This document shows, in pieces, positions 5,477 to 64,000 of a stretch of 64,000 bases of DNA (positions are counted from its first letter, which is position 1; every line of letters begins with the position of its first letter). Below the pieces are notes generated by a model, which saw only the letters and a program-made list of their open reading frames with translations, was not told the origin of the DNA and made no database searches. The position numbers and the translations under genes were made by a program. Origin of the DNA: Bryum argenteum (lineage: Eukaryota; Streptophyta; Bryopsida; Bryales; Bryaceae); contig CM073323.1 in the NCBI GenBank assembly GCA_037043015.1, positions 13,699,758 to 13,763,757 of the forward strand, written 5' to 3'.

Positions 5477-6716
5477 CACTACAAGGAAATGGGGCCCGAG
5501 ATGACAAATAGTTGACAAAAAAATGTCCGAAATGACGAAGTCAGCATCTCGCAGCCCAACTCTGTCACTTTGGACATTATTAATGTTTTTGTCAACTTCT
5601 TGTCAAATTCTAGTCAACTTCTTGTCAATTTATTTTATTTACGACAAGCATGGAATTGCTAAAACTTTTTGTAGACTTTAACCGTAGGATCTTGTAATTT
5701 ACTTGTTTTTGAGCTACCGCTGAAATTTTCAACCGTTGGATCTTCTCCATTTGTGAGATCATAACGTTCAAAGTTGATGCAAAATGTCAAAATACGACAT
5801 TTTGCATGAAGGGCAGAAACTTTGAAGAACTATAACTTCTTCATCCGGACTCCGTTTTGGACAAAATCACTTGGGTTGGTTTTCATATAGAAAAATACCT
5901 GCATGAAATATTGCAAAAAAAAAAATTTTTAAAAAAAGTTTTTTTACATCGTGAAAAATATTCAAAGTCTGCTCGGTAGTAAAAAAAGGCCCTAGCATAA
6001 AAACAAAATAATTTCAAAAAAAATTGAAATTTTTTATACATATAAAAAAATACCTGCATGGAATATTTCAAAAAAAAATTTTGAAAATTTTTTTTTTTTA
6101 CATCGTGAAAAATATTCAAAGTCTGCTGGGTAGTAAAAAATGGCCCCAGCCTCAAAAAAAAAATAAAAATAAAAATAAATTGAAATTTTTTATACATATA
6201 GAAAAAGACCTGCATGGAATAGTGCAAAAAAAAATTTTGAGAAAAAAAATTTTTTTACATCGTGAAAAATATTCAAAGTTTACTGTACTTGTACTTAAAG
6301 CATATATATATAAAAAAAAACGTATCTTCGGACATGAAATTGGATAGTAGGTGAGTTGGCTAGTCACTTAGACTATGCCCGTGAGGTCAAGGGATCGAAT
6401 TCCCTAGCATACCACTTGTGAGCCTCCACCGGTGGGGCCCGCATTGCCCGCGGTAGGGCCCTCGCTACCCCCTTGATGGGGCCCGCGCTATTTTTCGTTG
6501 TGCCAACGCTGCTGCCCGGTGTACCCGGGCAGAGAAATGTTTCCTCAAAATTTCCGAATTTTTAATTTTTTTGCATTGTGGAACTTCGTCCAAATTGACA
6601 AATGAATGATAGAATTCTGTCAATTGAGTGACCGAATCAGGGTCTCCTAATTGACGGAGCAATTGGCAGGTTTCTGTCAAAATTTCGTCAATTAGGATAC
6701 TATTCTCCTTGTAGTG
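5477..6716. mobile_element. Non-autonomous CACTA element nested in the 5' LTR
   Basis: The left end CACTACAAGGAAAT and right end CTCCTTGTAGTG form an inverted repeat of about 11-13 bp. The element is flanked by ATT on both sides (5474-5476 and 6717-6719), the three-base duplication expected of CACTA elements. The 1240-bp body has no transposase. It holds three direct copies of a roughly 150-bp unit, starting near 5881, 6030 and 6190, each with ATACCTGCATGGAATA-like and ACATCGTGAAAAATATTC blocks. A tRNA-like module lies at 6347-6414. It inserted after the retrotransposon, because it splits the LTR minisatellite. Confidence 0.85.
6347..6414 (+). other. tRNA-like (SINE-head-like) sequence
   Basis: The segment starts GTAGGTGAGTTGGCTAG and ends TCCCTAGCATACCA. 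An A-box-like TGGCTAGTCACTT lies at 6357 and a B-box-like GGATCGAATTCC at 6392, with about the spacing found in tRNA genes. A T-arm of five pairs (AGGGA/TCCCT) can be drawn. The acceptor and D stems are degenerate, so I do not think this is a functional tRNA. It resembles the tRNA-derived head of a plant SINE, or a captured tRNA relic. Confidence 0.45.
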
Positions 6717-7000: not shown

Positions 7001-7606
7001 ACCATGTTGCTCTTCTTTGCACCGTCAAGCGTACAAGCGAGTAGTATTGAGGCGGTGATAGGCACAGTGACCATCTAGGGAGGGGCGCAGACAACTGTTA
7101 AACCTAGAGTTAACCCAGCAGATACTGGACAGTGGAGGATCAGGGAGCCGTCACCAGGAGTTGAGGTCCTATCCCAAGAGCTGAGGGCAGCTCTACACTA
7201 CAAAGGGGAATGGATGCCGATATTCAAGTAAGTTCTCACTCACCACTGTTCTGATTAACTTGTTGGACAACAGTAGAAAATATTAGAAGCGATAATAGAA
7301 CAAAGGAGGAACATCAGAGTTGGAATGAGCAGGGTTGGGACCACCATAACTGTATCAACCAGAACTGATAATATAAAAACTAGAGAAGCATAGGAAATGC
7401 ACCTAGGAATAGACTTGTAGGACTGTATTGCACCATTATCTGGTAAAAATCCTAGACTAAGCAATACCTTGAAAACCTATAGGATAGTGGAAATCTAAGT
7501 AGGAGCAGTAACTACTGACGGATCCAATCAAGGACCAGACTGGGGTGGCAGAGGGATATACTGGCCAGGAACCAGAAGTACGAAGGACTAGCACCCAGGA
7601 GACCAG

Positions 7607-10388
7607 ATGAGGGTTGAGACAGAGATCCTCAACACCTACCCAAAAAATCACCTGGAGGAGCAGACTCGACTTACTGGAGAAGCAAGGCAGACCGAAGAAC
7701 ATCACCAGATAGTGCCAGGAGGGAGAAGCAGCAGCTGCACTATAATGGATCGAGACTACAAAGAAGGCATCAAGGAGGACATAGCCAGGAGACAAGCAGA
7801 AGAAAGGCTTGCCAGATTTGAGCTCAGGGAGCGGAGGGCAGCAGTCAATACAAGGAAGAACATGGGAGGGCAGATCAGCTCAGATGAGAGCGTTGCCAAA
7901 GGCAGCAACATAGACTTAATCGATATGGATGTGGTCGGAGAGAACTCCAGCCAGGAGACAATAATGGGAGTAAGCACAAAAACAAGAGGTACAAGAGCAG
8001 AACCTGGACCCAGTTTCAAGGACTGGCAGGAGGAGCAGGAAATTAGGAAGTATGAAGGCCGGGTACCATCACCAAGGACTAGCAGAACAAAATTTTCTGG
8101 ACCAGGAGATAGAGATGCACAACAATATTGGCGTCCTACAATAGCACGGGTCAGTTCTTTTGACCAACACCAAGAGGAGGACAGGAGAGGTGGTAGCAGA
8201 CCAAACACCCCAAGACCAGGAGGTCAGAATTCTGGTGAATTGGTGGAGATGATCGAAACTCTGAAGAAGAAGTTGGACGAGGTCAGGGCTGAGGAGAGGG
8301 CAACAAGAGTAGCATCCGTACCTCCAGAAATGCCCAAGACCAGCAAGAACGAGCAACCAACTCCACGGAAGCAGACAGTACACTTTTCACAAGACAAACT
8401 ACAAGAAGTAGTTTATGATGAAGAGGAGGAAGACAGATGGCGTTTTGAAGAATTCAAGGCCAGACAGCACGACGAAAGGGAAAAGAAAAACGAGCAGGCC
8501 AGAAAGGACCAGTATACCCGACAAATGGAGGAGTTGGAGCAAGCAACTCAATTCAAGTACTGGCAGGAGGCTCAACGAAGAGAAGAACAGAAGAAGGAAG
8601 CAGAAAGAGCCGAAGCCCTACAGCAGGAGACTCTTCGCCACGAAGCGCTGCGGTTGTGGCAGGAGGCCCAAAGACTAGAAGAGCAGAATAAGGAGGCTCA
8701 AAGGCAGGAAGAGCAACGTGAAGCTGCCATACTCCAGTGGCAGGAAGTGTTGAGAAAAGAAGAACAAGCACGGGAGGCTCAGCATAAGGCTACCCAATGG
8801 TTATGGCCAGGACCACCTAAGGTGCAGGAGGGGCGAATCATCCAAGGGGGTGGACGAGAAGTATTGGGGATTCCGATTTCTCCAGCAGCTGCCGCCAGCG
8901 GACCAGAGGGAACACAAACTGGCCCGTTGAGAGGAGGCACAATCCCACCGACCTATGTAGATCACCTAACTGGTGATGAATATCTACCAGAGGCGCCCAA
9001 GCCAGCATACTGGCCAGGTGAGGGAATTAGGGCTGAGGCAGGAGCTTCATCAGCAAGTCCTGGATTTCGTGGGTCGGGAGGGCCACCACTAACCAGTAGG
9101 GCGCCTGAAGTACGCCCTATGCCAACACTAGGGAAGGAAATACCCCCCATACCACGAGGAAGCGGTTATCCTAAACTGGGCATGCCCATGACTAGCAGGG
9201 TCCCACCAGCATCTGGACCAGGAGTACCACCAGTATACGGACCAGGACTACCACCCGTATACGGACTAGGGGTACCACCAGTACTTGGATCGGGTATACC
9301 ACCAGTATCGAGACCAGACCTACCACCAGTATCCGGACCAATCAGCGTGACACAGAGGAAGCCGTTGCCGTACACAAAGTACAAGGAGGGAACTAATCCA
9401 GATGCTCATATCCGACAGTTTGAACGAACGTTGTGGCACAACGGAGAGGGAGAAGAACAGGTGATTATCAACCTATTGGGTACCACTAAAGTTAGGGTAA
9501 AGTAGGTGCCTGGTATGAGAATTTCTTGGAGAGTCATCCCTACTGCTCTTGGGAGGAAGTGAAGGCTGCTTTTTGGAGACGATACCGAGACCAGACCACA
9601 GATGAGGCTGTGTACCGGGAGCTGAAGTCATTCAAGCAAGGAGACAAGGAGAAGGTGCATGATTATTATGATCGCTTTATGACATTGATCAAGTGTCTCC
9701 AGTCCGACCCTGGAGAGAGATTCCGGATCACTAACTTTCGAGCTGGTTTACTGGAGTACATCAAGATTACGACCAGTGTAGCTCCGGTACACAGTCTGAC
9801 GGAATTGGTTGACGCTGCTCTAAGGTGTGAAGAGAACTGCACTGATTCCAGTGGCAAGCCGACCAAGTTTGAGGTCAGGAAGGTGGAGACCCCAGGAAAA
9901 ACAGCGAATGTGGCCAAGAAGGAGCCTGAACCAGAAGCAGCCAGAGTACAGTGTGGACTATGTAAGAAGTTTGGTCATATTGACAAAAACTGCTGGTTCA
10001 ACCCGGCAAACCAAAGGCAACCGGGCGTCACGAAGGAGGATGGGGACCAGTAGGAGTGAATGAAGTGTCGGTGCAGAAGTCATCAACGACTTACCAGAGG
10101 CCAGCAACTTCAAAAGCAGGTACCAGTCAGCAAGGAGGTTTTCATGATCGACCCGATATGTGCTACTTGTGTGGTCAACCAGGACACAGGAGTTGGAACT
10201 GCTCTCTAAAGGCCCAATGGGAACAGTTTTTAGCGGACAAGGACCAGAAAGCTAAACAACCGGCCCACCATGTAAGTAACGTGGAGATTGAGTTACTGGA
10301 AGAGGAGAAGAATCCGGTCGACGTGACCAGTATGACCCGGGCCCAACGCCAAAAGGCTGGATTACCTCCAATCCAAGAGGAACCTTAG
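7607..10388 (+). other. gag region of the Tat/Athila-like element
   Basis: The first part is long and disordered, with a coiled-coil block of about 120 residues (near 8410-8800) built from repeats such as WQEAQRREEQ, then a proline-rich tract with repeated PPVYGPG-type motifs (near 9200-9340). A retrotransposon gag domain follows (near 9520-9850; WEEVKAAFWRRYRD, LKSFKQGDKEKVHDYY). Two zinc knuckles are visible: CGLCKKFGHIDKNC near 9954-9995 and CYLCGQPGHRSWNC near 10162-10203. The N-terminal extension is unusually long for gypsy gag. This is a fossil gene with breaks. Confidence 0.75.
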
Positions 10389-10454
10389 GCACCAGAACCC
10401 CGGAATGCTAGAACCAAGGAAGATTGGAAGGAGGAGGAGCGGATTAGAAACCTC

Positions 10455-13400
10455 ATGTTTGACACCTTGAAGGAAATCGAGCTTAAGGAGGAGGAAGAGA
10501 GAAGAGTAGCAGATAAGGCTCGAGATGCTGTTCTGTCTGAGAATACAAACGGGGGTCCAACAGAGTTGCTGGACAATGAGTGGGCAGGATTTCCTGACTC
10601 TGACACTCTACACTATACAACGAAGTTGGCTGAACCGGTTCCAAGAACACCCCATGACACCAATACCAGACAAGACCAGGACGAGCATTTTGCAATAGAA
10701 GTGGGTAGGCAAATCCTGGCCAGCCCAATAACATTAACGGTGGGCCAATTGTTGCAGATGGCCCCAAATATAACCGAGTTCGCCAAGGCCCATGTATTTA
10801 CTGAGTTGGGACATCACCAGGTTTCTGGTATAGCCCAAACTCCAGTAGCGAAGCCAATGACCGGACAAAGAGGTAAGAACGATGTGATAGCGAGTTTAGC
10901 TATAGATGTGGACAGGGAATTACCGGTGTTAGCCGTGCGGATTGGCAACGGGGTTCTCGAAAATGTACTGTTGGACGGTGGATCCGGTGTTAATCTAATC
11001 ACTGATGAAGAGCGGAAGCGCCTAGGATTGAAGGACCCACAACCAGCCCCATTCAGACTCAGAATGGCAGACCAGACAGTCGTCGACTCGGAGGGATTGA
11101 TACGCAATGTCCGGATTCACATTCATGGTATCCCTTACCTTATCACTCTAACCGTAATTAAAAATAAGGAAGTTAATGAAGCATATAGCATGCTGTTAGG
11201 ACGTCCTTGGTTAATTGATGCTAAGGTTAATCATGAGTGGGGTAATAATACAGTCACAATTCGAGGCAACGGAACAGTCAGGACAGTATCGGTAAGTAAA
11301 AGGAAGGGACCCAGACCTAAATTACCAGAGGTCCTGGTCTGCTATAATTTTGCTGAGGGACTAACGGATGAGGAAGAGGCACGTTGACTGGCTACCGAGC
11401 AGGACGTACTTGTCGTTGGAACAGTCACATTACCTCGAATGGATCAGGACCCGGACCAGGCCAGGGACCATGACCAGTTGGGGGGACCAGAACGCGTGTA
11501 CCCTGAACATTTCTACACTTTCGAAGAAGGAGATATTGAGGTGGATGAAACTCCAGCCAGAGAGAAGGTGAAGAATTTGAAGATTGCTGCATGGAATCTA
11601 CCGGAATCGGAGCAGTTACGGAACGTGAACCTGGGTACAGAAGACGAACCTCAGTTGCTCCGGATAAATGCTGACATCAGTCCGGAGCAGGCCAATGAGG
11701 CAGAGATACTCTTCCGGGAGTACAAGGACGTGTTCGCCTGGACATACAAGGACTTGAAGGGTATTCCCCCTTCAATTGCGCAACACCGCATCGAGCTAGA
11801 GAAAGATATACCACCATCGCACCAGGCCAGATATCGGATGAATCCGAACTACGCCAGCATCGTGAAGCAGGACTTGGACAAGTTGCTCCAAGCAGGATTC
11901 ATTGCACCAGTAGAGGATGCCACCTGGCTGTCACCCATTGTTATTGTGCCAAAGAAAAATGGAAAATTAAGGATTTGTATTGATTTTAGGAAATTGAACG
12001 CTGCTACTAAAAAGGATCCGTACCCCTTACCATTTACTGAAGAGGTGTTAGATTCTGTGGCAGGACATGAAATGTATTCATTTCTGGACGGGTACTCAGG
12101 GTACCATCAAATCCAGATCGCACCAGAAGACCGGTTTAAGACTGCTTTTGTGACGGACTGGGGAGCCTTCGTTTGGGTGGTCATGCCATTCGGCTTGAAG
12201 AATGCACCACCAACTTACCAAAGGGCAGTAAACCGAGCCTTTCGTGATTATATTGGAGATTTTATGAAATTGTTCTTAGATGATTTCAGTGTATACAGTG
12301 ACGTCACTAGTCATCTAGCCAAGTTGAGACTATGTTTTGAGAAATGTCGGGAATATGGCATAAGCTTGAACCCAGAAAAATGTTTCTTACTGGTGTATTC
12401 AGGAATCATCCTGGGACATGTGGTGTCAAAGGAAGGTAAATTCCCGGACCCAAAGAAGCTTGAGGTGATAGCCAACATGCCAAGGCCAAAAAAACCAGTT
12501 GATGTGCAGGTTTTTAACGGTTTTGCCTAGTTTAACAGATGCTACATCAAGACGTATGCACACATCATGGAACCCATCACAAAACTGATGCGGAAATCTG
12601 AGGAGTTTACCTGGTCAGACGAGTGTGAGGAGGCGTGGAAGGCGTCGAGGACAAGTACCGAATGCGCCTATCCCGATTGCGCCACGATGGGACCTGAGTT
12701 TCATGTGCATACCGATCGTCGGCCATAGCAATTGGGGTATCTTGGCCCGAACCCAACAGGAAGTGTGACCAACCAAATTCTTACGCATCCAGACTTTTGA
12801 ATTCTGCTGAAAAGAACTATAGTACCACTGAAAGAGAAGCTCTTGCAATGGTTTATGCGTTGAACAAGTATAGGCATTATTTGCTAGGTAACAAGTTTGT
12901 ATTTTTCGTTGATCACATGGCCCTAGTGTACGTGGTGAACAAGCCACAGGTATCCGGCAGGATCGCTCGATGGTTGCTGCTGTTCCAAGAGTATGACTTC
13001 ACGGTGGTCTACAAACCAGGCAAAACTCATGGCGTAGCAGATGCGCTGTCAAGACTACCAAATGGAAAACCAGCTACTAGTGTGGCGGACCAGACGAAGG
13101 ATGCAAGTTTGTTCTATGTCAAGCCAGAATGGTTGGAGGATGTTACTGCTTATCTACAGACGGGAGTTGTTCGACAAACACTAACTAAGGAGGAGCAGAG
13201 GAGGTTGATCTTGAAATCGTTACCGTATACACTCAACGAGGGCGTCTTGTCTGAAGGGCCGAGGATCACGGTGCTACGAAGAAAGATCGGACCCACTGCC
13301 GGAGACAAGAATGAAGAAGAGATGCACTACGATGTAGGGGTGGTCACTTTTCACAAGAAATCACCACAAGGAAGATTTTGGATGCCGGGTACTGGTGGCC

Positions 13401-14180
13401 AGCCATCCACAAAAATGTGGCTGAATACTGTAAGGCCTGTGATAGGTGTCGAGAGGTGGGCGATATGGCAACACTGCCTGGCCCACCGGTGACCAAGATG
13501 CCACCAACCATTCATGAAATGGGGGTTGGATTACATCGGTCCAATCAAGCCAATGGCAGCAAAGACCGGTAACCGGTATATACTGGTGGCCACGGACTAT
13601 GCCACTAAGTGGGTGGAGGCCAGGGCTTTGAGGACCAATACAAAGAACGGTGACAATGTTTTTGTATGAAAGAAAGTCTTCACACGGACGCGGTGTCCAT
13701 TGACACTAATTAGTGACCAGGGCTCTCATTTCATAAATGAGGCCATTAAACACTTGGTGGAGCATTTCCTGCTCCAACATCGCACTTCTACGACATATTA
13801 CCCCCAAGGTAATGGCCAGGCGGAATCAACAAACAAGGTAATAGGCCGATCTTCGACAAGCTTGTAAATGACAAGCGAACCGACTGGGATCAACACTTGC
13901 CTACGGTGTTATTCTCATACAGGACTGCTTACAAAGTGATGACAGGATATACCCCGTTCCAGCTGGTATATGGGCTACATCGATTGATGCCCACGGAATT
14001 CTTAGTTCCGACCAAACGAACTCATTTGGACATAGAGTATACACCGACCCGGGTGTTAGCAGCCAGGATTGCTGACTTGGAGCAGCTAGATACTATACGG
14101 CAGGATGCACAGGCCGTAGCTGGGACCAGACAGTGGAACCGGTCATTATGGAGCCAACAGCACTATCGGTAGAAGGATTT
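10455..14180 (+). other. pol region: protease, RT, RNase H, integrase
   Basis: Protease: LLDGGSGVNLI near 10975. Reverse transcriptase: SPIVIVPKKNGKLRICIDFR near 11930-11990, PFGLKNAP and FLDDFSVYSD near 12190-12300; the usual YxDD is FLDD. RNase H: NYSTTEREALAMVYALNKYR near 12815 and the end motif THGVADALSRL near 13030. Integrase: zinc-binding and core parts between about 13370 and 14180. Order and motifs define a Ty3/gypsy element. It is a fossil with several breaks. Some 330 bp after the integrase part encode its C-terminal tail. Confidence 0.8.
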
Positions 14181-19096: not shown

Positions 19097-20581
19097 ATGT
19101 TAACCGGGATTTACCTAGCCAAGAAAAAAAAGAATCTCCTAGTAGTCTATTAAGTCCTGAATGAAATCCTGCCCGGATGAAATCCTGTCTTTGGGATGAA
19201 ATCTGTCGTAGGATGAAATCACATTGCAGGATGAAATCGCATTGCAGGATGAAATCCTGTTGCAGGATGAAATCTGTTGCAGGATGAAATCCTGTGGATG
19301 GATGAAGGCGGCTAGGGTTAGAGATTAGGGTTTGGCGGCCAGGGTTTGGGGGAGTTTTGGAGCTCTCTCTCTCTTGCTGGAGCTAGGAGCGTGTGTGTGT
19401 GTGTGTGTGTAGGGTGTTGGATAGTGACAGGAACTACTGCTTAGGTCGATTCATGGTACCGGAAGGACCAGTAGCACCGCTGCGGAAAATGCTTGTACCA
19501 CTACTATTTTTTTCAATGACATTATGAAAGGATTTGTATGTAAAAGTGTTAAACTTAAGTGTTGAGATTTCCGTGGTAGTGTGGGGAGCGATGTGGGAAG
19601 CGATATTGAAAGCGATATTGGGAAGCGATATTGAAGCGATATTAGGAAGCGATATGAGAAGCGATATTAGGAAGCGATATTGAGAAGCGATATTAGGAAG
19701 CGATATTGAGAAGCGATATTGAAGCGATATTGAGAGCGATATTGGGAAGCGTCGCGAGAAAGCGATATTAGGAAGCGATATTGAAGCGATATTGAGAGCG
19801 ATATTAGGAAGCGATATTGAAAGCGATATTAGGAAGCGATATTGAAGAAGCGATATTAGGGCTTGATATTAGGAAAGCGATATTGAAGCGATATTAGGAA
19901 GCGATATTGAAGCGATATTAGGAAGCGATATTGAGAGAAGCGATATTAGGAGCGATATTAGAGAAGCGATATTGAAGCGATATTGGAGAGCGATATTAGG
20001 AAGCGATATTAGAGAAGCGATATTAGGAAGCAATATTGAAGCGATATTAGGAAGCGATATTGAAAGCGATATTAGGGCTTGATATTAGGAAGCGTCTTGA
20101 AAGCGATATTAGGAAGCGATATTGAAGCGATATTAGGAAGCGATATTGAAAGCGATATTAGGAAGCGATATTGAAAGCGATATTAGGAAGCGATATTAGG
20201 AAGCGATATTGAAAGCGATATTAGGAAGCGATATTGAAGCGATATTAGGAAGCGATATTGAAGCGATATTAGGAAGCGATATTGAAAGCGATATTAGGGA
20301 AGCGATATTGAAAAAGCGATATTAGGAAGCGATATTGAAGCGATATTAGGAAGCGATATTGAGAAAGCGATATTAGGAAGCGATATTGAGAAGCGATATT
20401 AGGAGCAGCGATATTGAAAAGCGATATTAGAAACGATATTGAGAAAGCGATATTAAAGCGATATTGAGAAAGCGATATTGAAAGCGATATTGAGAAGCGA
20501 GATTAGGAATTTTAGGGTTTCAGAGAGTTACAACATCATAGGTAAGGTATTTGGAGGGGTATGAAGAATACCACTTTCACA
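19097..20581 (+). repeat. 3' LTR
   Basis: It begins TGTTAACCGGG and ends CTTTCACA like the 5' LTR. It shares the GGATGAAATCCTG repeats, the CT and GT microsatellites and the terminal GGGTTTCAGAGAG block. Its minisatellite (about 19588-20505) is three times longer than that of the 5' LTR and built from a GAAGCGATATT unit instead of GAGCAGTATT. The GGCGT duplication follows at 20582-20586. Confidence 0.9.
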
Positions 20582-40369: not shown

Positions 40370-40777
40370 CGGCATGAGATTGTTTCAAGAGCTGTTTGGT
40401 CTTCGACAGGACTCACGAGGGATGTCGTCATCTGAACACATCTGATTCTTTAGAGTACTCGAATAATTTGGTGCCTTTTTTCCTTTTTCAATGTACTGGA
40501 TACGACCTCTCTCAAACTGGCACTTGTAGAACTCTTGATGATGGGCCTGTTGGCAACATCCCTTGAAATATATCATCGTTTAGTTTAAGTTCGCAAAGTC
40601 ATTCGTAAGTGTTAACCCCCTCTAAATGCTAACTTTCTCCTACTCCCCACATACGGCACACTAATAATGTTGAACGAAATGATACTCCCTTCTATGTAAT
40701 TGTGAAATTATAAATGTTATATGGATTATATTTATTACCGTACATCCACAGTATGAGTGAATAAAAGTTAACAACTA
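40370..40777. other. Cytochrome c 3' flank
   Basis: Presumably holds the 3' untranslated region and polyadenylation site. It turns AT-rich after about 40650. No other gene is seen. Confidence 0.4.
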
Positions 40778-40994
40778 CTCTAAATAGGTAGATTAGTGTT
40801 AGATTTTTATAAGATTTGAAAGTGCTATAAGTTTTTACTTTTGATCAAAATTAATTACCAAGGGTATTGATTCCAATACCAGGAAAGGATCCCCATCTTG
40901 ACCGACGTAGAGGGTAAATATATTGACCAACAGTAAAAACTTATAACATGTTTACATAAATTAGTGTATCTAACACTAATCTACCTATTTAGTG
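40778..40994. mobile_element. Stowaway-like (Tc1/mariner) MITE, copy 1
   Basis: A 217-bp element flanked by TA at 40776-40777 and 40995-40996. Its ends are CTCTAAATAGGTAGATTAG and CTAATCTACCTATTTAGTG, a long inverted repeat continuing through GTGTTAGAT. A second copy in opposite orientation lies at 55993-56208. It has no coding capacity. Confidence 0.85.
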
Positions 40995-41159
40995 TACACA
41001 ATGTTAGTACTCCACTTCATAATTTTGTATCCTACTTCATGACTTTGAGTCTGTTAAATATACACATGTTACGACATTATATTTCTTACAATTTTGTTTC
41101 TGGAAATTTTCATTATAAATTTGATTTTATTAAAAATGATTTTATGGAATTGTTAACTG

Positions 41160-43306: not shown

Positions 43307-43460
43307 ATTTCTATTTTCTATTTTCTATTTTCTATTTTCTATTTTCTATTTTCTATTTTCTATTTTCTATTTCCTATTTCCTATTTCCTATTTTCTATTT
43401 TCTATTTTCTATTTTCTATTTTCTATTTTCTATTTTCTATTTTCTATTTTCTATTTTCTA
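43307..43460. repeat. 7-bp tandem array (TATTTTC)n
   Basis: About 22 copies of a 7-bp unit TATTTTC, with three central copies changed to TATTTCC. The periodic reading frame it creates (FLFSIFY repeats) is not a gene. Confidence 0.95.
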
Positions 43461-44175
43461 TAAAGAGTATTTGTTGTAATAAATCCTTTTACATAATGCT
43501 CATTTATTAGTTTCCTATTTAATATAGTATATATGATATAAGGTGGATAGTTTGTTATTTTTTGTTTTGTTTTGCAAGTGATATTAAAATCTCAAGAACT
43601 GCCAGTTAATTGTAAGAGGCACATAACCAAAGAAGTTGGACTAAATGAAACTCAACCAAGGTTGTTTGAATTCATACGTAACTAGTGCCTTTTGGATGGA
43701 GACTTGAGCAGTAGTACGTGAATGTTTTAGAGCCACACATTTGTCTTCGCAATTAGGGTTTACAAAGAGGAGCAAATGTGTATATATTCTCTCCATATGT
43801 TCTAGGATAGTGAATTGTTTGTTTGCATTGTGTACATGTGTTACAAGTTGTGATAGTAGGAGCGGAGGGCACACATCCCTTTAGTTTTCTTGTTTTTTCC
43901 CATTGAGTGCTCTCTTGAGTGTAAGGACCTTGAGAGATTCAACCCTTGCTTTTGTGTGTAGCGACTTGACTTCGGTGCAGATTCAAAGCCTTTCGGCTTT
44001 TGGATTTTAATTGAGTAGTTTCTCTACATGGAGTGTTCATCTTGGCAGACACTATTCAACCCTTTCTTAGTGATTTCCCCCAACCATTTTCATTTGCGTT
44101 TGTTTACGTGTTCTCCAACTAAACAAGGTTGTGTGGTGGCGGGTTGTGCAGTGGTGAAGAGTTAATCACCTAGAT
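43461..44175. other. Intergenic stretch before the B3 remnant
   Basis: No convincing coding sequence. It is T-rich on the plus strand and may hold leader sequence of the broken B3 gene that follows. Confidence 0.35.
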
Positions 44176-54607: not shown

Positions 54608-55200
54608 CACTAGTAGAAAATTGCACAAAAAGTGATGTTCATAGTGACTTGTCCTTAGTGACTCAAAAGAGTGTGTTTAAGCCCTAAAGGTCCAAGAAAG
54701 CCGAATTGGCTCTTTGAGGTTCCTCCATAGACAATATTCAACCAACTCTTACTATTATAATTTCACAAATGAAAAAGAATCAATTGTTCAAATTTGGCAT
54801 GTGAGTGAAAGGTTAAGTTAAACTTGAGATCCAACGGTTGAATCTTTCAAATAATGCTTAGATTGAGTATTTTTAGGCCTAAAGTGGAGAAAGGTCTATT
54901 TTGACAATTTAAACAATTCTGCACCAATAACCTTTTATTAGGGGTTGATTGTGCTTTTAAAAATATCAAAATGAATGATTGAATTCGTCTTCTCCTTAGA
55001 ATTTTTATTATTTGATTTGAGCTTCTCTTTAGATTTTTTGGGTGTAAAAAGCTACATCACAATCTACTAAAATAGGGAAAATTGAAGAAAAAGTGACAAA
55101 TATAACATTCCATTTGATTTTGTTAAAAGCACAATTTAAATGAAAACTTTTTTGTCACTAGGACAAGTCAAACTTCACTTTTTTGCCATTCCTATCAATG
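54608..55200. mobile_element. CACTA-like non-autonomous element, degraded
   Basis: The left end CACTAGTAGAAAATTGCAC continues with AAAAAGTGATG and ATAGTGACTTGTCC. An inverted, diverged counterpart (GGACAAGTC, ACTTTTTTGCCATT) lies at 55170-55195. The right terminus is too diverged to fix and no target duplication is visible. It belongs to the same family as 55312-56213. Confidence 0.5.
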
Positions 55201-55311: not shown

Positions 55312-56213
55312 CACTAGTAAAAAATGGCACTTTAGGTGACGTCTGTAGTGACTCGTTTCTATTGAGGCAAAAGATTTTCCTAGTCCTCGTTAGAAGCCTT
55401 TGTTGAGAGTCAACTAAGTGGTTGTAGGAGATGTATGCAACTTACGTGATCCACATTCCTTTTTTTCTCACTTCTTCCCAAATGAGGGTCACGCCACCAT
55501 GACTTACAAACACGACAATCTCGAGTAAGTTCTAGTAAATCTCCACTAAGTTGGAGGACTTTGGATTCTCAGCAACAATCGGAAGTAGAGCGCTTAAAAG
55601 AAAATGGGCGGTGGTAGAAAGTGGCACCAAAGGTGACACTTGTACTCACTTATTTGTAATAACACAAAGTGCTTGTTTAAATTGTGCTTCTAATGATATT
55701 AAAAATAAAAATAAAAAAAGACAAAATAAAATAAAATATGAATAAATAAATACATAAATAAATATTTCTTAATTTTGTCACTTTCCCTTAGATTCTTTGT
55801 GTTGTTGTAATAAGCATTCTATAGCATGCTAAATTAATATTAAATTTAAGGGAAAATGATTATAACAATTTAGAACTTTTTTTTTTGATGTAATTAGAAG
55901 CACAAATAAAACAAGCACTATGCGTCACTACTAGGAACGCATCACTACCAACAAGTCACTATGGACGTCATCTACACTACCATTTTCTACTACACTAAAT
56001 AGGTAGATTAGTGTTAGATACACTAATTTATATAAACATGTTATAAGTTTTTACTGTTAGTAAATATTTTTACCCTCTACAATGGTTAAGATGGGGATAC
56101 TTCCATAGTATTGGAATCAATACTCTTGGTAATTTTTTTTACCGAAAGTAAAAACTTGTAGCATTTTCAAATCTTATAAAAATCTAACACTAATCTACCT
56201 ATTTAGTGTAGTG
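55312..56213. mobile_element. CACTA-like non-autonomous element interrupted by a MITE
   Basis: The left end is CACTAGTAAAAAATGGCAC. Once the inserted MITE is set aside, the right end reads CCATTTTCTACTAGTG, its inverted repeat. CAC flanks both sides (55309-55311 and 56214-56216), the expected three-base duplication. Subterminal GTGAC/GTCAC motifs occur at both ends. The original length was about 684 bp with no coding capacity. The Stowaway-like copy 2 sits three bases from the right terminus. Confidence 0.8.
55993..56208. mobile_element. Stowaway-like (Tc1/mariner) MITE, copy 2
   Basis: A 216-bp copy of the family at 40778-40994, in reverse orientation, with ends CACTAAATAGGTAGATTAG and CTAATCTACCTATTTAGTG. 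TA flanks both sides (55991-55992 and 56209-56210). It inserted into the TA inside the terminal CTAGTG of the surrounding CACTA-like element. Confidence 0.9.
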
Positions 56214-56216
56214 CAC

Positions 56217-57830
56217 ATCTACATAATAACATTCATTAACACACAACTCATCGCATTTTGACCATTATGATCTCATAATCAAAGCAAAATCAATGACTTG
56301 AAAATTGAAACATGACCATTGAATCAAGTGAACTTTAAGATCTATTGTATCTATCATAATGTTATGTTACTTTCTTTGGGCTTTGTGTGATGGCTCACCC
56401 CATATTCTTTTTCATATTCAAAATAATTAACATGTTCAATTGCTAAAGATGTTTTGCTAAAACTATTGCCACTAATCATGCTAATCACCCTTTCTTGTCT
56501 TGTTGATCGTGCCATACAATTACTTCAAACAATTTAATGATTGCTCACATTATAAATGAGCACCCAAGTTTACTAAGTTCAAACTATTACAAATTCTACC
56601 AGGGCAAACTTCATAATCTACAGAAATGAGCTTCAAACTTTTCAATAGAAATTGACTTCTTATTTTCCCCAATTATTGGGGGGGGGGCGCACAGGGCCAT
56701 TTAGTTGAAAAATGGGCACTTTTTAGTTGAGATTTTTTTCAACTGGGGGCCGCACAGGGGGGCTCATTTCAACTGTGAGAAAATTTCTCAACTGTGGTCC
56801 CACAGAGGAGAAAATTTCTCAACCTTGTCCCCCACACCTAATAATAACATAGTTGAGATTTAACACTATGAATCTCAACGAAACTCAATGGTGCCCCGAC
56901 CCACCATTGAGTTTCATTTTTTAGAGGGCTTCCATGAATTGGATGTTAATTTGATCATCATCCATTTTTTTCCCTTTACTGTATTGCAATTACTGGAAAT
57001 TGGTGCTTAATAAACTAGGGGGCTTGAGGTACCAGAGTACCAATACTCTCACCCCGGTTATTATTCGGTCACCTCACCTCACCACTGATCATATTATTAA
57101 TAAAAATTAATAAATATTATTACATTATTATATTATAAAATATTATTATACCATTAAATATTATTATATTATTAAATTATTAATATAAAAATATTCTATT
57201 ACATATTATAAAATATGTATTCATTATATAAAATATTTGTATTAGTAAATTTTGTATTATTGATATATTAACAATACTAGTACAAGGGAATTATGGTCAT
57301 AAATGTGGTTTGAAATTTTTGAAACTAACTCATTTGTGATTGAAGTGTTATTAGTGAAAACAAAAGTAAGCTATTCAAATCTAAACTTTCCTTAAAAACC
57401 AAAACGGTCTTTTGTTGTTTGGTTAGCCTAGGTTTTAGGTTAAAATTCATATTTTTGACTAAGATTTTTGTTGAGTGCTCCCTATATTACAAGGTGTATG
57501 TGCAAAAATTGCAAAGTCAAAATCCAATTTTAGAGTTTTTAACGGTAATTTTTGAAAATGAACCTACGAAAATTTTAAGATAAAAAAATTCAACAACGAA
57601 GTCGTTGGAGATTATTATAAAATCATACTTATGCAAAAATATTAGAAAAATCTATAGTAGATTTCACATAGTTGGAGTGTTCCACTTTGTTCACATATAA
57701 ATGCGATTCTACAAGTAGTATGATAATGCAAGATTTAGGTAAAACTATCAATTTCTACCGTATATATAATGTAGTCCATAATGGCTTCCCTATTGAATCG
57801 GGCACTGAACCTATGTTCTTCATTTGGGTC
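56217..57830. other. Intergenic with inverted-repeat-rich patch
   Basis: 56680-56910 begins with a G run and GCGCACAGGGCCATT and ends near GGTGCCCCGACCC. It has several inverted AGTTGA/TCAACT motifs and looks like a degraded MITE or the left terminus of the Harbinger-like element to its right; no duplication could be fixed. 57080-57280 is nearly pure A/T. No gene seen. Confidence 0.35.
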
Positions 57831-57832
57831 GT

Positions 57833-59257
57833 TCACTTCATCTCCAAAAAGAACTCCTTCGCTTGAAAATCATTAGGAATTTGTAAATATTCCAAAATTT
57901 CTGATAATGTTTTATCTTTGCTTTGAATCAAATAGTTATGCAGTATCGCACAACACTTAATAACATCCGGTACAAAACCCACCCTCAATTTTGTTTTGTT
58001 ATCCATTTCCTTGAATCTTGCTTTGAAAATTCCAAAAGCGCGTTCTACAACGACCCTTGTTGAGCTATGATGTGTATTAAACATTTTGTAATTATCTGTT
58101 AATTCCATAGCGGGACTTGCTTTAAATGGTGTTATAAGCCATGGTGCTAAAGGATAAGCCTTATCTGCAATGATATAGGGTTTTATATCAACACTTGGAA
58201 TAAAATCAGTAGGCTTATTATTTAATCCACGAATTTTTCCATCTCTAGCCAATTTATAGAATTCGGTTTGTTGAAAATGTGATGAGTCATGATTGCATCC
58301 CGGGAGTCCAAATGTATATATAAGTGAAACAACACTCATTATCAACTATAGCTTGCATAATCAAACTACAAAACCCTTTTTGTTGATGTAATCTTCTCGA
58401 CGCAACGATCGGGAGGTGGATTAATATGTACATGTGTACCATCCAATGCCCCAAGGCGGTGAGCTAATCCTTTTTGCCTTGAAATTCAATTGCAATACGT
58501 TTTAATTTATCCAACTCGAGGCCACTCCAATTTGTATGATAGTCTCTTATTTACAATTTTCACAAAATCTTTTAATATTTCATAAAACCGTTGATCGTCC
58601 AATTCCAAAAAGATGAGAGACTAGATTTATGGAGGATCCACTTGTTAATTTAAACAATGCAACAGCAACCCTTTTTTCAACTGCAATTGGCGTTCTCCAA
58701 TTGGTGGTTTGTTTTTTCAAACCATCTCTGAGCTCATCACATAATTTCAGAAATGTTTTCTTTCTGCAATGTAGAATATCAAACCATAAATGGGAAGGGT
58801 ATTCTTCCATCAAAAAAGTAGAAAACCACGTCATACATCGGGGCATGACATACCACCGATTTGTCAAATCAAGCATAAACCTTTTTAAAATACACAAAAC
58901 TTGAGTGTATTGCATAATAATATATGCTACATTATCTTCAAGATTGATATCAATAATAGGGTTGTATATATTCCGGGCATGATGGTAAAAGATGTTAATG
59001 ATATACAAAATGTTTGTCCTAGGTTCATAATGTTGTCCTCCAAGTTGTACTATTTCAACCAATAGCATTGTTAGTACAAATATCATTGATGACAACATTG
59101 CCTCCATATTTTGTTTTTTTTCAGAAGACAAAGGCATCAAATTTATTTCTTCTTCAATATCTATTTCGTTTTCCAACATGCTGTGAGCTCCATATCTCAT
59201 TACAGCTTCTTCAAGAATATTTTCTGGACGGTGTTCCATATTTCCCAAGGGCTCCAT
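57833..59257 (-). pseudogene. PIF/Harbinger DDE transposase (HARBI1/ALP1-like), frameshifted
   Basis: The N-terminal frame (59257-58580) has an acidic leader, a hydrophobic helix, then YPSHLWFDILHCRKKTF, PIAVEKRVAVALFKL and HLFGIGRSTV, the helix-turn-helix part of Harbinger transposases. The nuclease core follows: the first Asp in GALDGTHVHINPP (codon 58443-58441), the second in GLPGCNHDSSHF (58288-58286) and Glu in VVVERAFGIFKARF (58045-58043). The C-terminus ends FFLEMK at a stop at 57833. At least two or three frameshifts between 58580 and 58320 break the gene. The ATG chosen is the first in the N-terminal frame; upstream sequence also reads open to a possible splice acceptor at 59287. Such transposases work with the Myb-like partner protein to cut element ends. 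This copy is probably inactive. Confidence 0.85.
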
Positions 59258-59468
59258 TTCAACCTGATGGCCTGTACACCAGAGCAATAAAATTGAAGTA
59301 ATTATCTAATTGTATGTAATCCAAATAATTTTATAATTATAAATTTTTATACGTCCTTAATACATGGAACTAACATCACATATCAAATCCTCATTTTATA
59401 TCAAACTTTAAATAATAAAAGAAACTAAACATTCATAAACAACCATTATTTATAAATAAAGAACATAC

Positions 59469-60994
59469 CTTCACCAACAACGTATTCTTGATTTCTCCAT
59501 GATTGCTTAGCGCAAATATAATATCTCGTATTTTATTTCGCTTATTTTGAACATCGATACTAGAAACCGCTTTTTGGTAAGTCAGTAAATTTTTAACAAA
59601 ATACTTATGCATTAGTATAAAACGTAGAATAAAAATAATAATCAAAGTTGTTTTGCACTAATCACTTGCTCTTAGTTACAAGACATACAATTATTTTAAA
59701 GTAATACAAAATGATATAAGTTGTGTTTAGTGTATGCTTACAAAATTTTCATATCCACAAGAATCGTTCAACTTGAACTTCGAAGGTGCCGATTGAAGAA
59801 ATAATTCAACATAATGGAGAAGAAATAATCCACAATCATAACCGTTTGTCTGCTGAGGCACCTAATATCATTACAGTTCAATGTATAAGCAGGTGTACAA
59901 ATAATTACTCACAAGTATATACCATGTATTTTTATTTGAGTAATGTACAGTGTGCAACGTACCTCAATATTTTCGTATTTTATGTTTGCAATTGCCTCCT
60001 GTAACAAATCACTTTCCAATGATTGTTGGCTTTGTAAGTAGTGAAAAATGAATCTGCAGTGTAATGTTCCATGCATTGGTTAGTTAAGAAGGAGTTTCAA
60101 ACAAGTCAAAGACAATGTAGTATCTATGGCTTTAATATAAATAACCAATATCCAAATTAAATGATATTCAATATACATACTTCCGAATTGGATCTTCTAT
60201 GTCCAAGTGTGTGAATTTACTAAGAATTCAAATGCAAGATGCATGTTTCACCAACATCGTTGTTTCCTGCACAATTAGAGCACAATTTGAGAAAATGTAT
60301 GAATTTAATCACTTCTATATATTTACATCATTCAAACTACTTTGATTTGAAGCACATTTGGATTTGAATCGTAATTGAAACTTACCTCTACCGTTTCCAA
60401 TGAGGCCAAGATGACTAATGATGATAAGACTCCAATGTTCACTACAAGAATAAATTACAAAATTAGTTACAATAAAATTAAAAGATGTGAACATCAATTT
60501 CTTAAAGTAAGATAAGAATGTAAATTAAAAAGGTAAATTCTACAAAAAGTAAAAGGTTTTCAGAAATATGTACCTTTTATTAATTGGTATAAAAATATAC
60601 TCTTTTTCGAGTAAATTTACTCCACGAGTCCATCTAGACAGAGATTCAAAAGTGGAATATCCTTGTACGACTTGCATGAGTTTGGTGAAGAAAAAGCAAG
60701 TGAAACAAAAAAGTTTGTTCGGTGATGGAATCCTCACATGCAAATATCTACAAAAAATCGACAAAATTGTTAGTTTAACATCTGGTATGACTGTACGTGT
60801 CATTTCAATTACCATTAAATAAAAATTACTGAAAAAAGAAAAAAAAAAACTTACCTAATATAGAAATCAATTAGAATATCGTTTAGGTATACGCAGGGTT
60901 GCAACCTGTCAATATCTGCACCCCTAATGTCCATGCCATCACTATACATATAATTGTAATATGATACAATAACAAGATCAGATGTTGAAGCCAT
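59469..60994 (-). pseudogene. Ulp1/SENP-type SUMO protease (peptidase C48) gene
   Basis: Exons with canonical junctions: 60994-60855, 60747-60574, 60441-60386, 60266-60181, 60053-59963, 59861-59742 and about 59640-59469. Family landmarks in order: DIDRLQPCVYLNDILIDFYI; KLFCFTCFFFTKLMQV; RWTRGVNLLEKEYIFIPIN; SEHWSLIIISHLG with the catalytic His; CILHLNS, where the family has HLDS; SKFTHLDIEDPIRK; and VPQQTNGYDCGLFLLHYVEL with the Gln and the catalytic Cys. In the fourth exon a two-base deletion after CILHLNS shifts the frame, and the catalytic Asp appears as Asn, so the copy is likely inactive. The phases of the first six exons agree once that deletion is allowed for. Ulp1 proteases mature SUMO and remove it from proteins. 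The N-terminal regulatory region of host ULP2/SENP6-type enzymes is missing: the domain begins within about 20 residues of the ATG. The last exon's acceptor and the C-terminus are uncertain. Confidence 0.8.
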
Positions 60995-60999
60995 GGAGA

Positions 61000-62490
61000 A
61001 AAGAAGTGTTATATTAGAAGAAAATATTTGCAAATCTTTAAAATATGGAAGACGATAATATCAAAACTCTCATAAATGGGGTACCTCAAAATCACCATTT
61101 ACTTAATTGAATTCGAAAGTGCAAAATTCCCTATTAAAAATATGAAATGTACAAGTCTTGTAAGGAAAATAATGAAAGAAACTAGTCAATTTTACAATAT
61201 CCTTGGCTATATTTATATCAACTATGTAATAATATAATATATATCTATAATAAAATATAAAGTGGTAAACTTAAGTGAGTGTTATCATATGTAAAGTTGA
61301 GATTTTTAAATTCAAAGTAGATCAATTCATTATAGTTCAGTGAGTGTTATCATTGTTCAAGTAGCGCTTTTTTAAACCAAAATAAATATATTCACTAAAG
61401 TCAAGTGAGTGTTATCATTGTGAAAGTTAAGCTCTTTACATCCAAAGAGGAATACCGTATAGGAAAACATATCTTAACCCTTAACCCTTAACCCCTCGTA
61501 TGCGGTAGTTTCAAAAAACGACATTTTGGATGAAAAACAAAAACATTGAAGACCCATATTTTCATCATCAAATCTAATTTGTGTATTCAAGATCGCAGAC
61601 CTATAAAAGGAAGTATGACTTAATGGCAAGCATTGTAGTGAAGGCAACTTTTCCTTTTGGGATTCCAAACACAAGGCATATTTAACCATTCCAACCTAAT
61701 TATACGAAATCAATTTTTTTTAATATAAATTTTTTACAAGAGTAAGATCATTAGATGCATCATAACTACTTTCTAGTTATAAGTTTTTTTTTATTAAATT
61801 AACTTTAATATTTGATTTGCAATGAGGTTTGTACAATGAAAAAATGGAAAAAATGTATGATTTCTGAGGATGTAGATCTCCCATACAAACCGTTAGATTT
61901 TTACTTTATTTTTTGGGATGGATTCCATTAGTAGTCTAGTTTTAGTGGTAGAATCCTTAACCTAATCAAAGACGTGTTGAACGTAGGTTATAAATTACAA
62001 GTAATTATTAAATAGTGAACTATGGCATATTTTCTTTACTGTTAGCTTAATCTATATTAATTTTATCACATATTTGGAACTACCAAAATTTATTGTAAGC
62101 ATTTATTTATATGTGTTTTTTTTACTTATTTCATGTTATTGGAAGTACCTTGTCCAGTGTAAGTAATGAAAATATGTAAGTTTTGGTATAAATATCAAAT
62201 GTGAAAAAGGTACATTAATTTTAGGAACGGTTGTAACACGATAAAAGCAAGAAGGGTCAAAATATATAAATGTGATTTTATTATTAATTAGAGTAATAGT
62301 TTATTTTCAATGAAATTTAAAGATACAATAAATGTGTATAAGTAAAAGTCGGTTCCAAAATGATTTATATATACAAGTATATTGATGTTTAAACTAATAT
62401 GATTTTTTATTGAATCCTCATAAGTGAGAGTTACTATAGATCATTTTAATCTGTGTCTGAATATACTTTTGTTGGATTCTTTCCATTATT
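61000..62490. other. Divergent intergenic region between Ulp1 and Myb-like genes
   Basis: AT-rich, presumably with the promoters of both genes. 61275-61450 holds three direct copies, spaced 64-65 bp, of a unit starting AGTGAGTGTTATCAT. A TTAACCC triplet run lies at 61475-61492. No coding sequence seen. Confidence 0.4.
61275..61450. repeat. Three direct repeats of about 64 bp
   Basis: Copies begin at about 61275, 61339 and 61404, each with AGTGAGTGTTATCAT, then a GTAAAGTTGAG-like block and a CCAAA-TA-ATTCA block. They lie in the divergent promoter region inside the Harbinger-like interval and could be protein-binding repeats or subterminal repeats. Confidence 0.6.
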
Positions 62491-63454
62491 ATGGATTACT
62501 TAGATACCATGAGTCTTGAGGGGGAGAGAGATATTAAATTAGAAGATGAAGCAGAGGAGTCTCAAGAAGAGGGAGGGAATACTCAAATTGAACCAGACGT
62601 CAAAGGGAAAAAGAAAATATTTATATGGAGTAAAGCCCAAGCACTCGCATTGATTGAGTTGAAAGAAGAGGAGTTCAAAGAAGAAAGTAAAGGTAAAAAG
62701 ACATCTTTTAAGTCTAGAGAGTCCAAGTGGAAAAAAATTTTAAAATATCTGCAAGAAAAACCTTTATTTGGAAGTGCGGAACTTGATATGGATAAATTAT
62801 GTCATAAATGGGATAATTTGATTAAGGATTTTAGAGCATACAAGAATTATATTGAGAAGACATCAGGAGGTGGTAATCCATGGGTGTTGAATAGAGAAGA
62901 TCGGAAGAAAGCAAAACTACCCGCAACGATGGATCAAACAATGTACGACAATATGAATAGTTGGTTCGGAAAATCTGGAAAATTTATTGGTAATATACCA
63001 ACGATTGATTCATTGATCAAAAAGATGAAGATGCAACACGTGGTGGGATGGACGTAGAAGGCGCGCGTGAGGAAATTGAAGTAGAAGAAACTTCAAAAGA
63101 TAGAGAGACGACTAGAAAAAGAAAAGCCCACAATGAAGGTTCCAAATGAGCGTCTCAAAAAGGTAGATCGAGAAGTAGAAGACACTTTATACCGTTAAAG
63201 GTAAGAGACCAACTCTTGAACGATAATCTTGCAAAGACAATCGATTTTCGGCGATAATGCTTACAACCAAGAAAAAAAGATATCGGGAGGAGTCACAAGC
63301 CCGTCAAAGCATGTTGGATCCGGAACGCAGACGTCTCACTCTTGATCAAGAAAGAAACAATCGACACGGAGCGCACTAGATGATATCTTGATTTTTGTCA
63401 ATAGTTTAGCACAATCGGCGGCTACAATTGCAAATTCCGTGAAAGAGAAAACGT
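62491..63454 (+). pseudogene. Myb/SANT-like (trihelix) Harbinger accessory protein, 3' end frameshifted
   Basis: ATG at 62491 opens a frame of 188 codons to 63057. An acidic N-terminus of about 45 residues is followed by a Myb/SANT-like domain: KIFIWSKAQALALIELKEEE, SKWKKILKYLQEKP, DKLCHKWDNLIKDFRAYKNY, then GNPWVLNREDRKKAKLP and a helix to about residue 175. This matches the DNA-binding second protein of PIF/Harbinger elements, which helps the transposase into the nucleus and onto element ends. After IDSLIKK a frameshift is likely: the alternative frame continues with an acidic tail and an RKRK cluster, and family-like sequence (ILIFVNSLAQSAATIANSVKEKT) reappears at 63387-63454. The main domain is intact. 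It diverges from the protease and transposase genes. Confidence 0.75.
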
Positions 63455-64000
63455 AGTGATGATTAAAAAAAAATAGCATTTTAGATCTCATCTTAAGGAT
63501 TATGTACTTGTCATTTTCAATGATCTCTAAAGGTTCAAGGATTGTGTTCATTTTGTTTTTGAATAAAGGGTTGTGATTTATTTTTTCTTAATTAATTCCA
63601 AGTACTCGAATTTCATCTAGTATGAACTTGTATATATCTCAAGAGACATACATATGTCTTACTAACTCAATATAATCTAACCCCTAAACATTCCAAATGT
63701 TTTTTTGTACACTATGAATGAAGGGCCTTAACTTTGAAGAGCCATACAAGAACTCCGTCATTGATTTTGTTTTGAACCTTTTTGTACATTTTCAATTAAG
63801 GGCCTAAACTTTAAAAAATTCTTCAGCGCTAAATAATTAATTTTTTGAGGGCTAAATAATTTATTTATTGAGGCCTAAGTGACAAGTTTTTTTAGGGCTA
63901 AATGACATATTTTTTTGAGGAGTAAATAATAAGTTTTTGAGGGCTAATTATTAAATTTTTTGAGGGTTAAATAATAATAATTATTATTATTTTTTTATCT
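63455..64000. repeat. AT-rich tail with GAGGGCTAAATAA-type repeats
   Basis: From about 63820 to the end, at least five spaced copies of TTTTTGAGGGCTAAATAA with small changes, spaced roughly 25-35 bp. The array runs off the window. It could be the subterminal region of the Harbinger-like element. No gene seen. Confidence 0.5.

What the first reader, a model, noticed from the sequence alone, without database searches (positions are those of the whole stretch)
57833..63454. A PIF/Harbinger element that appears to carry a Ulp1-type SUMO protease
The Harbinger transposase and its Myb-like partner flank a C48 protease gene. The protease is on the transposase strand, ends 212 bp before the transposase start codon, and lacks the long N-terminal region of host ULP2/SENP enzymes. 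Ulp1-like cargo is known from Mutator-like (Kaonashi) and CACTA elements; I know of no described Harbinger family with one. SUMO-protease cargo could help an element escape host silencing or stabilise its transposase. The unproven part is that all three genes lie between one pair of termini.
Basis: partly seen in the sequence, partly recalled or inferred. Interest (0 to 1): 0.78.

Follow-up and report, generated by a model that had tools for sequence, protein, structure and literature searches.

The report
Dead Harbinger relic beside SUMO-protease pseudogene
A decayed jumping-gene remnant in a plant-like genome has a broken, intron-bearing SUMO-protease gene lying between its two protein genes; whether the element ever carried that gene as cargo cannot be decided from this window, and the protease copy looks non-functional.

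Summary
The three genes are real. A Harbinger-type DDE transposase (minus strand, 59257-57836), a Myb/SANT gene (plus, 62491-63456) and, between them, a C48 (Ulp1/SENP) protease gene (minus, 60994-59469) are the only Pfam matches (E<=0.01) in a six-frame scan of 55-64 kb. All three are broken. The protease has seven exons with six GT-AG introns, keeps the His and Cys, but reads Asn at the catalytic Asp column and changes frame just after it. No TIR/TSD pair beyond chance joins the three genes or delimits two separate elements; the right end may lie outside the window, no source genome is held and no relatives were found. Best reading: one old Harbinger relic with a host-derived protease segment inside, comparable to grapevine Pifvine-3 (PMC2528002). 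Close rival: a host ULP pseudogene flanked by separate remnants. Boldest open reading: a spliced protease-transposase fusion, in frame through one of two acceptors.

The parts
59469..60994 (-). C48 (Ulp1/SENP-type, probably ULP2-like) SUMO-protease gene, pseudogene: 7 exons, E1 60994-60855, E2 60747-60574, E3 60441-60386, E4 60266-60181, E5 60053-59963, E6 59861-59742, E7 59603-59469
   Evidence: Pfam PF02902; exon model placed by hand, six GT..AG introns of 101-138 bp; PDB matches SENP2/SENP7/Ulp2
60181..60266 (-). Protease exon 4: catalytic Asp column reads Asn (LHLN), reading frame changes immediately after
   Evidence: SENP2 CLKYLDS aligned with CILHLN
60386..60441 (-). Protease exon 3 with the retained catalytic His (SEHWSL)
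59742..59861 (-). Protease exon 6 with the retained catalytic Cys (TNGYDCGLF)
59264..59468 (-). Intron-like stretch between protease exon 7 (donor GTATGT) and the transposase reading frame; possible exon starts at 59271 and 59263; the second gives an in-frame protease-transposase join
   Evidence: GC 0.15 in 59360-59301 and 0.43 in 59300-59241
58583..59257 (-). Harbinger-type transposase, N-terminal open block (ATG 59257; the open frame runs from 59305)
   Evidence: position relative to the DDE block; no Pfam match of its own
58340..58600 (-). Transposase middle part with ALDGTH, at least five frame changes by eye
   Evidence: role of the motif recalled
57836..58345 (-). Transposase DDE C-terminal open block
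   Evidence: Pfam PF13359 E 3e-20, PF04827 E 1e-09
62491..63056 (+). Myb/SANT-like gene, first open block (Harbinger ORF1-type partner, tentative)
   Evidence: Pfam PF12776 4.8e-05, PF13837 2.6e-05; ATG position
63057..63456 (+). Broken 3' part of the Myb-like gene, at least four frame changes by eye, ends with TAG 63454-63456 after SVKEKT
56677..56935 (.). Possible left terminal region: G-run and GTTGAG/TCAACT-rich stretch; no partner found at the right
   Evidence: 11 of the window's 101 such hexamer hits lie in bin 56501-57000, next highest bins 4; hexamers chosen after seeing the stretch; interpretation is inference

Best explanation
This is the remains of one old plant PIF/Harbinger-type element whose transposase gene and Myb-like partner gene are separated by a segment carrying an intron-bearing, ULP2-type SUMO-protease gene copied at the DNA level from a host gene (a FUG1-like class IV gene, or the catalytic exons of an SPF-type gene). 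Shown: the three genes, their strands and order, a protease exon model with introns, and that all three reading frames are broken. Inferred: that the Myb gene is the transposase's partner, that one pair of ends once enclosed all three, and that the segment came in by transduplication. As a mechanism, a working ancestor would have moved by the usual two-protein route (Myb protein binds the ends and brings in the DDE transposase; described for Harbinger in PMC9179366, passages), with the protease segment as a passenger. Nothing here shows that the protease ever served the element.
For: Six-frame Pfam scan of 55-64 kb (E<=0.01) gives transposase, C48 and Myb and no MULE, CACTA or other transposase domain. 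Two complementary Harbinger-type genes lie 3.2 kb apart (ATG to ATG) on either side of the protease, which two chance insertions would rarely give. The protease keeps six GT-AG introns, so it is a DNA copy and not a retrocopy. Protease exon 7 ends only 212 bp from the transposase ATG. Precedent: Pifvine-3 elements very frequently carry a long 5' region (up to 3.5 kb), in most cases captured grapevine sequence with exons and introns, and ULP segments occur in MULE and CACTA elements of the same plant (PMC2528002, passages); Pack-PIF elements in maize and rice (PMC8903248, passages).
Against: No TIR pair with identical TWA flanks around all three genes beats chance. The published TIR core is at the shuffle level in 54-64 kb: 88 sites at up to 3 mismatches against shuffle means of 83 and 84, and 4 sites at one mismatch against 3.5 (mononucleotide shuffles). 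Transposase and Myb gene diverge, unlike PePIF1. The Myb match is weak and could be a host trihelix-type gene (GT-1 in the PDB, E 0.13). A 59-bp stretch between protease and Myb gene (61511-61569) is about 80% identical to 5787-5845, so other repeat debris lies between them. No second copy of the proteins exists in the window, and copies elsewhere could not be searched.
Confidence: 0.45

Rival explanations
1. A host ULP gene, most likely a short class IV FUG1-like gene or a duplicated, truncated SPF gene, decayed in place; the transposase and the Myb gene are two independent neighbours (two element remnants, or one remnant and a host trihelix-type gene).
For: A catalytic-domain-only host ULP class exists in at least flowering plants (PMC6117582 section 17; PMC6117577 passages; PMC11371177 passages). 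Introns are retained. A host-type gene (Nckap1/NAP1) lies on the same strand at 50.4-46.3 kb, so the region holds genes. The divergent order and missing shared termini fit.
Against: Each neighbour would have to lack exactly the part the other has. No TIR pair closes a transposase-only or a Myb-only element either (9 of 40, 8 of 25 and 33 of 40 shuffles reach the observed best). The protease copy is broken, so it would have to be a spare copy.
Confidence: 0.33
2. The protease and the transposase form one gene: protease exons 1-7 are spliced in frame to an eighth exon that encodes the transposase, giving a C48-DDE fusion protein in a Harbinger element.
For: Exon 7 has no stop before a consensus donor (GTATGT); an exon start at 59263 joins it in frame to the transposase block, 272 codons (45 of them exon 7) without a stop; GC content rises sharply there. 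Rice proteins with Tnp2 and ULP1 domains together are reported for CACTA (PMC2528002 passage).
Against: The first acceptor (exon start 59271) gives a stop after 68 codons, and I looked for the second after seeing that; with two acceptors an in-frame join by chance is about even. The ATG at 59257 has a good start context (recalled rule), so the transposase could start there after an untranslated exon. No transcript data.
Confidence: 0.08
3. The protease segment belongs to another, nested element such as a Kaonashi-type MULE or a CACTA element that inserted between the two Harbinger genes.
For: ULP segments occur in MULE and CACTA elements (PMC2528002, PMC13317346 passages). Some other repeat debris lies between protease and Myb gene (61511-61569).
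Against: No MULE or CACTA domain in 55-64 kb on either strand at E<=0.01. KIU domains are described as phylogenetically distant from canonical ULPs (PMC6117577, PMC6117582 passages), whereas this one matches animal and yeast SENP/Ulp enzymes directly; no KIU sequence was compared.
Confidence: 0.06

Closest known systems
Pifvine-3 PIF/Harbinger family of grapevine (Benjak et al. 2008, PMC2528002; passages read)
   Same: PIF element with transposase and ORF1 plus kilobases of captured host gene sequence including introns
   Different: In the passages seen, the captured genes are not said to be ULPs; termini and duplications are defined there, not here
Kaonashi (KI-MULE / KIU, Vandal) elements (PMC2528002, PMC13317346, PMC6117577; passages read)
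   Same: DNA transposons with a C48 (Ulp1) domain beside the transposase
   Different: Mutator superfamily; at least 97 copies with intact C48 domains in Arabidopsis; ULP domain distant from canonical ULPs; here Harbinger-type and a single broken copy
Cactavine CACTA families with ULP region (five families; PMC2528002; passages read)
   Same: Transposon with ULP region, same cargo type
   Different: CACTA superfamily; no CACTA domain here
CryptonF/CryptonS of oomycetes with C48 peptidase (PMC3212892; passages read)
   Same: Mobile element coding for a recombinase and a Ulp1-type peptidase
   Different: Tyrosine recombinase, oomycete hosts
Plant class IV ULP, FUG1 (At3g48480; PMC6117582 section 17)
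   Same: C48 protease restricted to the catalytic domain, ULP2-type, host gene
   Different: FUG1 keeps His-Asp-Cys; here the Asp column is Asn and the frame is broken; no FUG1 sequence was available to align

Membership tests
PIF/Harbinger element | Harbinger-type DDE transposase | tested here: met
   PF13359 E 3e-20, PF04827 E 1e-09; broken in at least five places by eye
PIF/Harbinger element | Second gene with Myb/SANT domain | tested here: met
   PF12776 24.7 bits, cut-off 23.6; weak, below cut-off in the six-frame scan, and host trihelix genes match related models
PIF/Harbinger element | TIRs with 3-bp TTA/TAA duplication enclosing the genes | tested here: inconclusive
   None above chance in the window; the right end may lie beyond 64000
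PIF/Harbinger element | Multiple copies in the genome | not testable with these tools
   No source genome held; no second copy in the window
Active C48 SUMO protease | C48 sequence signature | tested here: met
   PF02902 above cut-off on both blocks; 20 of 20 PDB sequences listed at E<=0.001 are SENP/Ulp
Active C48 SUMO protease | His-Asp-Cys triad in one reading frame | tested here: not met
   His and Cys kept, Asp column is Asn, frame changes within exon 4
Plant class IV ULP (FUG1) | Catalytic domain only, ULP2-type, own clade | tested here: inconclusive
   No further C48-gene domain found nearby; 13 more residues than SENP2 between HWSL and the Asp column suggests ULP2-type; no plant ULP sequence at hand for a tree
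Kaonashi/KI-MULE or CACTA with ULP | MULE or CACTA transposase next to the C48 segment | tested here: not met
   Six-frame Pfam scan of 55-64 kb, both strands, E<=0.01
Transduplicated host gene segment | High identity to a host parent gene elsewhere in the same genome | not testable with these tools
   No source genome held

The most novel reading that the evidence does not exclude
A lineage of plant Harbinger elements in which a ULP2-type SUMO protease is spliced in frame onto the transposase, so that the element makes a protease-transposase fusion next to its Myb partner; this window holds a dead member, and intact members would tie deSUMOylation directly to a Harbinger transposition complex.
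Probability: 0.07. Interest if true: 0.75.

Novelty: new variant of a known kind. Interest (0 to 1): 0.36.

Why it matters
If copies elsewhere share the three genes between one pair of ends, PIF/Harbinger would join MULE, CACTA and Crypton elements as a superfamily that has picked up a C48 SUMO protease, and the question why transposons keep this domain (silencing escape, transposase stability, or mere affinity for one host gene) could be tested by comparison across unrelated superfamilies. If not, the case is a useful caution: a short C48 gene is a normal feature of one host gene class.

Tried and rejected
Tried without result: source-genome search (none held). Relatives: transposase C-terminal block in viral contigs and genome contigs, protease exons 5-7 in viral contigs only, protease exons 1-3 in both, Myb protein in viral contigs only; none confirmed, and both collections are viral or prokaryotic. 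TIR/TSD searches for one element, a transposase-only element, a Myb-only element and (only) a nested segment. Published TIR core after TWA: no exact site in 54-64 kb, two elsewhere in the window (20972 plus, 13175 minus); level as by shuffling. By eye, TTA-GGGGTTGATTGTG at 54938 resembles the OsPIF2 end listed in PMC6327408, and GGGGTTAGATT on the minus strand at 63684 could face it, but the flanking triplets differ (TTA, TAA on the plus strand), so it is only a lead. NCBIfam (no family at E<=0.1 for 3 of 3 proteins); PDB for the Myb protein (best E 0.088, adiponectin). The tandem 23-bp array at 63828-63975 was considered as a subterminal repeat and not used. The bacterial promoter scan of 61000-62500 does not apply to a plant and is not used. 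Pfam six-frame scans covered 55-64 kb and 46-55 kb on both strands and 37-46 kb on the minus strand; the rest of the window was not scanned.

Considered and rejected: nested MULE or CACTA (no domain in 55-64 kb); retrocopy of a ULP (introns present); functional cargo in this copy (frame break and Asn at the Asp column). The clustered transposase frame changes, several at homopolymer runs, could be assembly errors; so 'dead transposase' is less sure than 'dead protease'.

Literature: 10 of 10 searches used. Fifteen papers opened: passages only for fourteen; of PMC6117582 passages and section 17 whole. Hoen 2006 and van Leeuwen 2007 were seen only as references. An earlier count said that published plant PIFs are head-to-tail citing PMC2213677; its table gives order, not direction, and the report does not use it so.
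Full report
What is there. No genome is held for this window. The PF04827 'Plant transposon protein' match, small introns and plant-type repeats make it plant-like; this is an inference. A six-frame Pfam scan of 55-64 kb at E<=0.01 finds three things and no more: Myb/SANT on the plus strand, DDE_Tnp_4/Plant_tran and Peptidase_C48 on the minus strand. Scans of the open blocks give C48 E 7.2e-10 and 3.4e-08, DDE_Tnp_4 3e-20, Myb_DNA-bind_3 4.8e-05. The Myb match is the weakest: just above one family's cut-off, below cut-off.

The protease. On the minus strand it has seven exons, 60994 to 59469, with six introns of 101-138 bp, all GT..AG (the exon edges were placed by hand); exon GC is 0.34 against 0.20-0.30 in the introns. 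Exons 1 to 4 and exons 4 to 7 are each open but in different frames; the change falls inside exon 4. Against solved structures the matches include SENP2 (E 3.7e-19), SENP7 (4.6e-17), Ulp2 (2.2e-14) and SENP1 (5.1e-14). In the SENP2 alignment His (HWSL) and Cys (DCG) are kept, while the Asp of SENP2's YLDS faces Asn in LHLN (that these are the catalytic residues is recalled; PMC6117582 states that the His-Asp-Cys triad is conserved in all Arabidopsis ULP members). So the copy is broken twice. It has 13 residues more than SENP2 between the His and the Asp column, which suggests the ULP2 rather than the ULP1 branch; this is an inference, and by score SENP2, a ULP1-branch enzyme, is the best match.

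Why the short form is no evidence for cargo. [quoted passage not shown] also passages of PMC6117577; PMC11371177; PMC6759571). A decayed duplicate of such a gene would look like this one. I had no plant ULP sequence to align, so neither FUG1 nor SPF parentage is tested.

The transposase and the Myb gene. The transposase has an open N-terminal block (ATG 59257, to 58583), a stretch of about 260 bp with at least five frame changes by eye, and an open C-terminal block (58345-57836). The Myb gene is open from 62491 to 63056 and then changes frame at least four times by eye before the stop at 63454-63456. Several of the transposase breaks sit at homopolymers, so assembly error is possible. The two genes diverge. 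In PePIF1, the published plant element for which I saw directions stated, ORF1 and transposase are head-to-tail (PMC6327408, passages); the Medicago table that I saw gives order only (PMC2213677, passages).

Termini. For one element around all three genes the best pair with identical TWA flanks scores 12.8 and is reached by 3 of 40 dinucleotide shuffles; it is AT-only sequence. For a transposase-only element ending just upstream of its ATG, 9 of 40 shuffles reach the best; ending anywhere to 62470, 8 of 25; for a Myb-only element, 33 of 40. The published TIR core occurs at the shuffle level in 54-64 kb: 88 sites at up to 3 mismatches against means of 83 and 84, and 4 at one mismatch against 3.5. 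Two leads remain. First, 56677-56935, where 11 of the window's 101 GTTGAG-type hexamer hits cluster (bin 56501-57000; next highest bins 4) next to a G-run; I chose the hexamers after seeing the stretch, and no matching right end is in the window, which stops 544 bp after the Myb gene. Second, GGGGTT ends facing each other at 54941 and 63684, but with unlike flanking triplets.

Between protease and Myb gene. The stretch 61511-61569 is about 80% identical to 5787-5845 at the other end of the window (59 bp, E 4e-08), so some dispersed repeat lies between them; a nested insertion there is possible and was not resolved.

Relatives. No confirmed relative in 4 scans of viral contigs and 2 of genome contigs, which are viral and prokaryotic collections, so this says little. 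Copy number in the source genome, the decisive point, could not be examined.

Interpretation. A transposase and a Myb-type partner on either side of one gene is most simply one element with a segment inside. The closest precedent is Pifvine-3 of grapevine, whose members very frequently carry a long 5' region (up to 3.5 kb), in most cases host sequence with exons and introns, while ULP segments in the same genome sit in MULE and CACTA elements (PMC2528002 passages). Pack-PIF elements are known from maize and rice (PMC8903248 passages). Both halves of the claim are thus known separately; the combination PIF/Harbinger plus C48 was not found in seven searches of the open-licence PMC library, three of which showed only the top of a longer list. 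I put one element with a passenger protease at 0.45 and a host ULP pseudogene between unrelated remnants at 0.33.

A bolder reading. Exon 7 of the protease has no stop before a consensus donor. The transposase frame begins with a sharp GC rise (0.15 to 0.43) near an acceptor. An exon start at 59263 joins the two in frame for 272 codons; a start at 59271 gives a stop after 68. A protease-transposase fusion is thus possible but close to what chance allows. Rice proteins with Tnp2 and ULP1 domains together are reported for CACTA (PMC2528002).

Verdict. Interest 0.36.

Noticed in passing
55989-56212 and 40774-40996: Two copies in opposite orientation, 90.6% identical, of a roughly 222-bp foldback element; the 56-kb copy has 31-nt perfect arms containing CACTAAATAGGTAGATTAGTG.
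   Followed up: partly
50358-46251, minus strand: Host-type Nckap1/NAP1 (PF09735) gene, profile positions 317-1118 matched in pieces in all three frames; its 5' part was not located.
   Followed up: partly
58340-58600: At least five frame changes by eye packed into about 260 bp of the transposase between long open blocks, several at homopolymers; possibly assembly error.
   Followed up: partly
61511-61569 and 5787-5845: 59-bp stretch about 80% identical between the protease-Myb interval and the left part of the window.
   Followed up: no
7592-13489, plus strand: Long open blocks in several frames that look like a Ty3/gypsy-type polyprotein (identity by eye, not scanned).
   Followed up: no
63828-63975: 23-bp tandem array (6.4 copies, unit GCTAAATAATTAATTTTTTGAGG) at the window's right edge.
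   Followed up: no
61266-61460: Three 65-bp tandem copies upstream of the protease gene.
   Followed up: no
43308-43461 and 19596-20509: Satellite-like arrays: 22 copies of TTTCTAT, and about 36 copies of a 25-bp unit.
   Followed up: no
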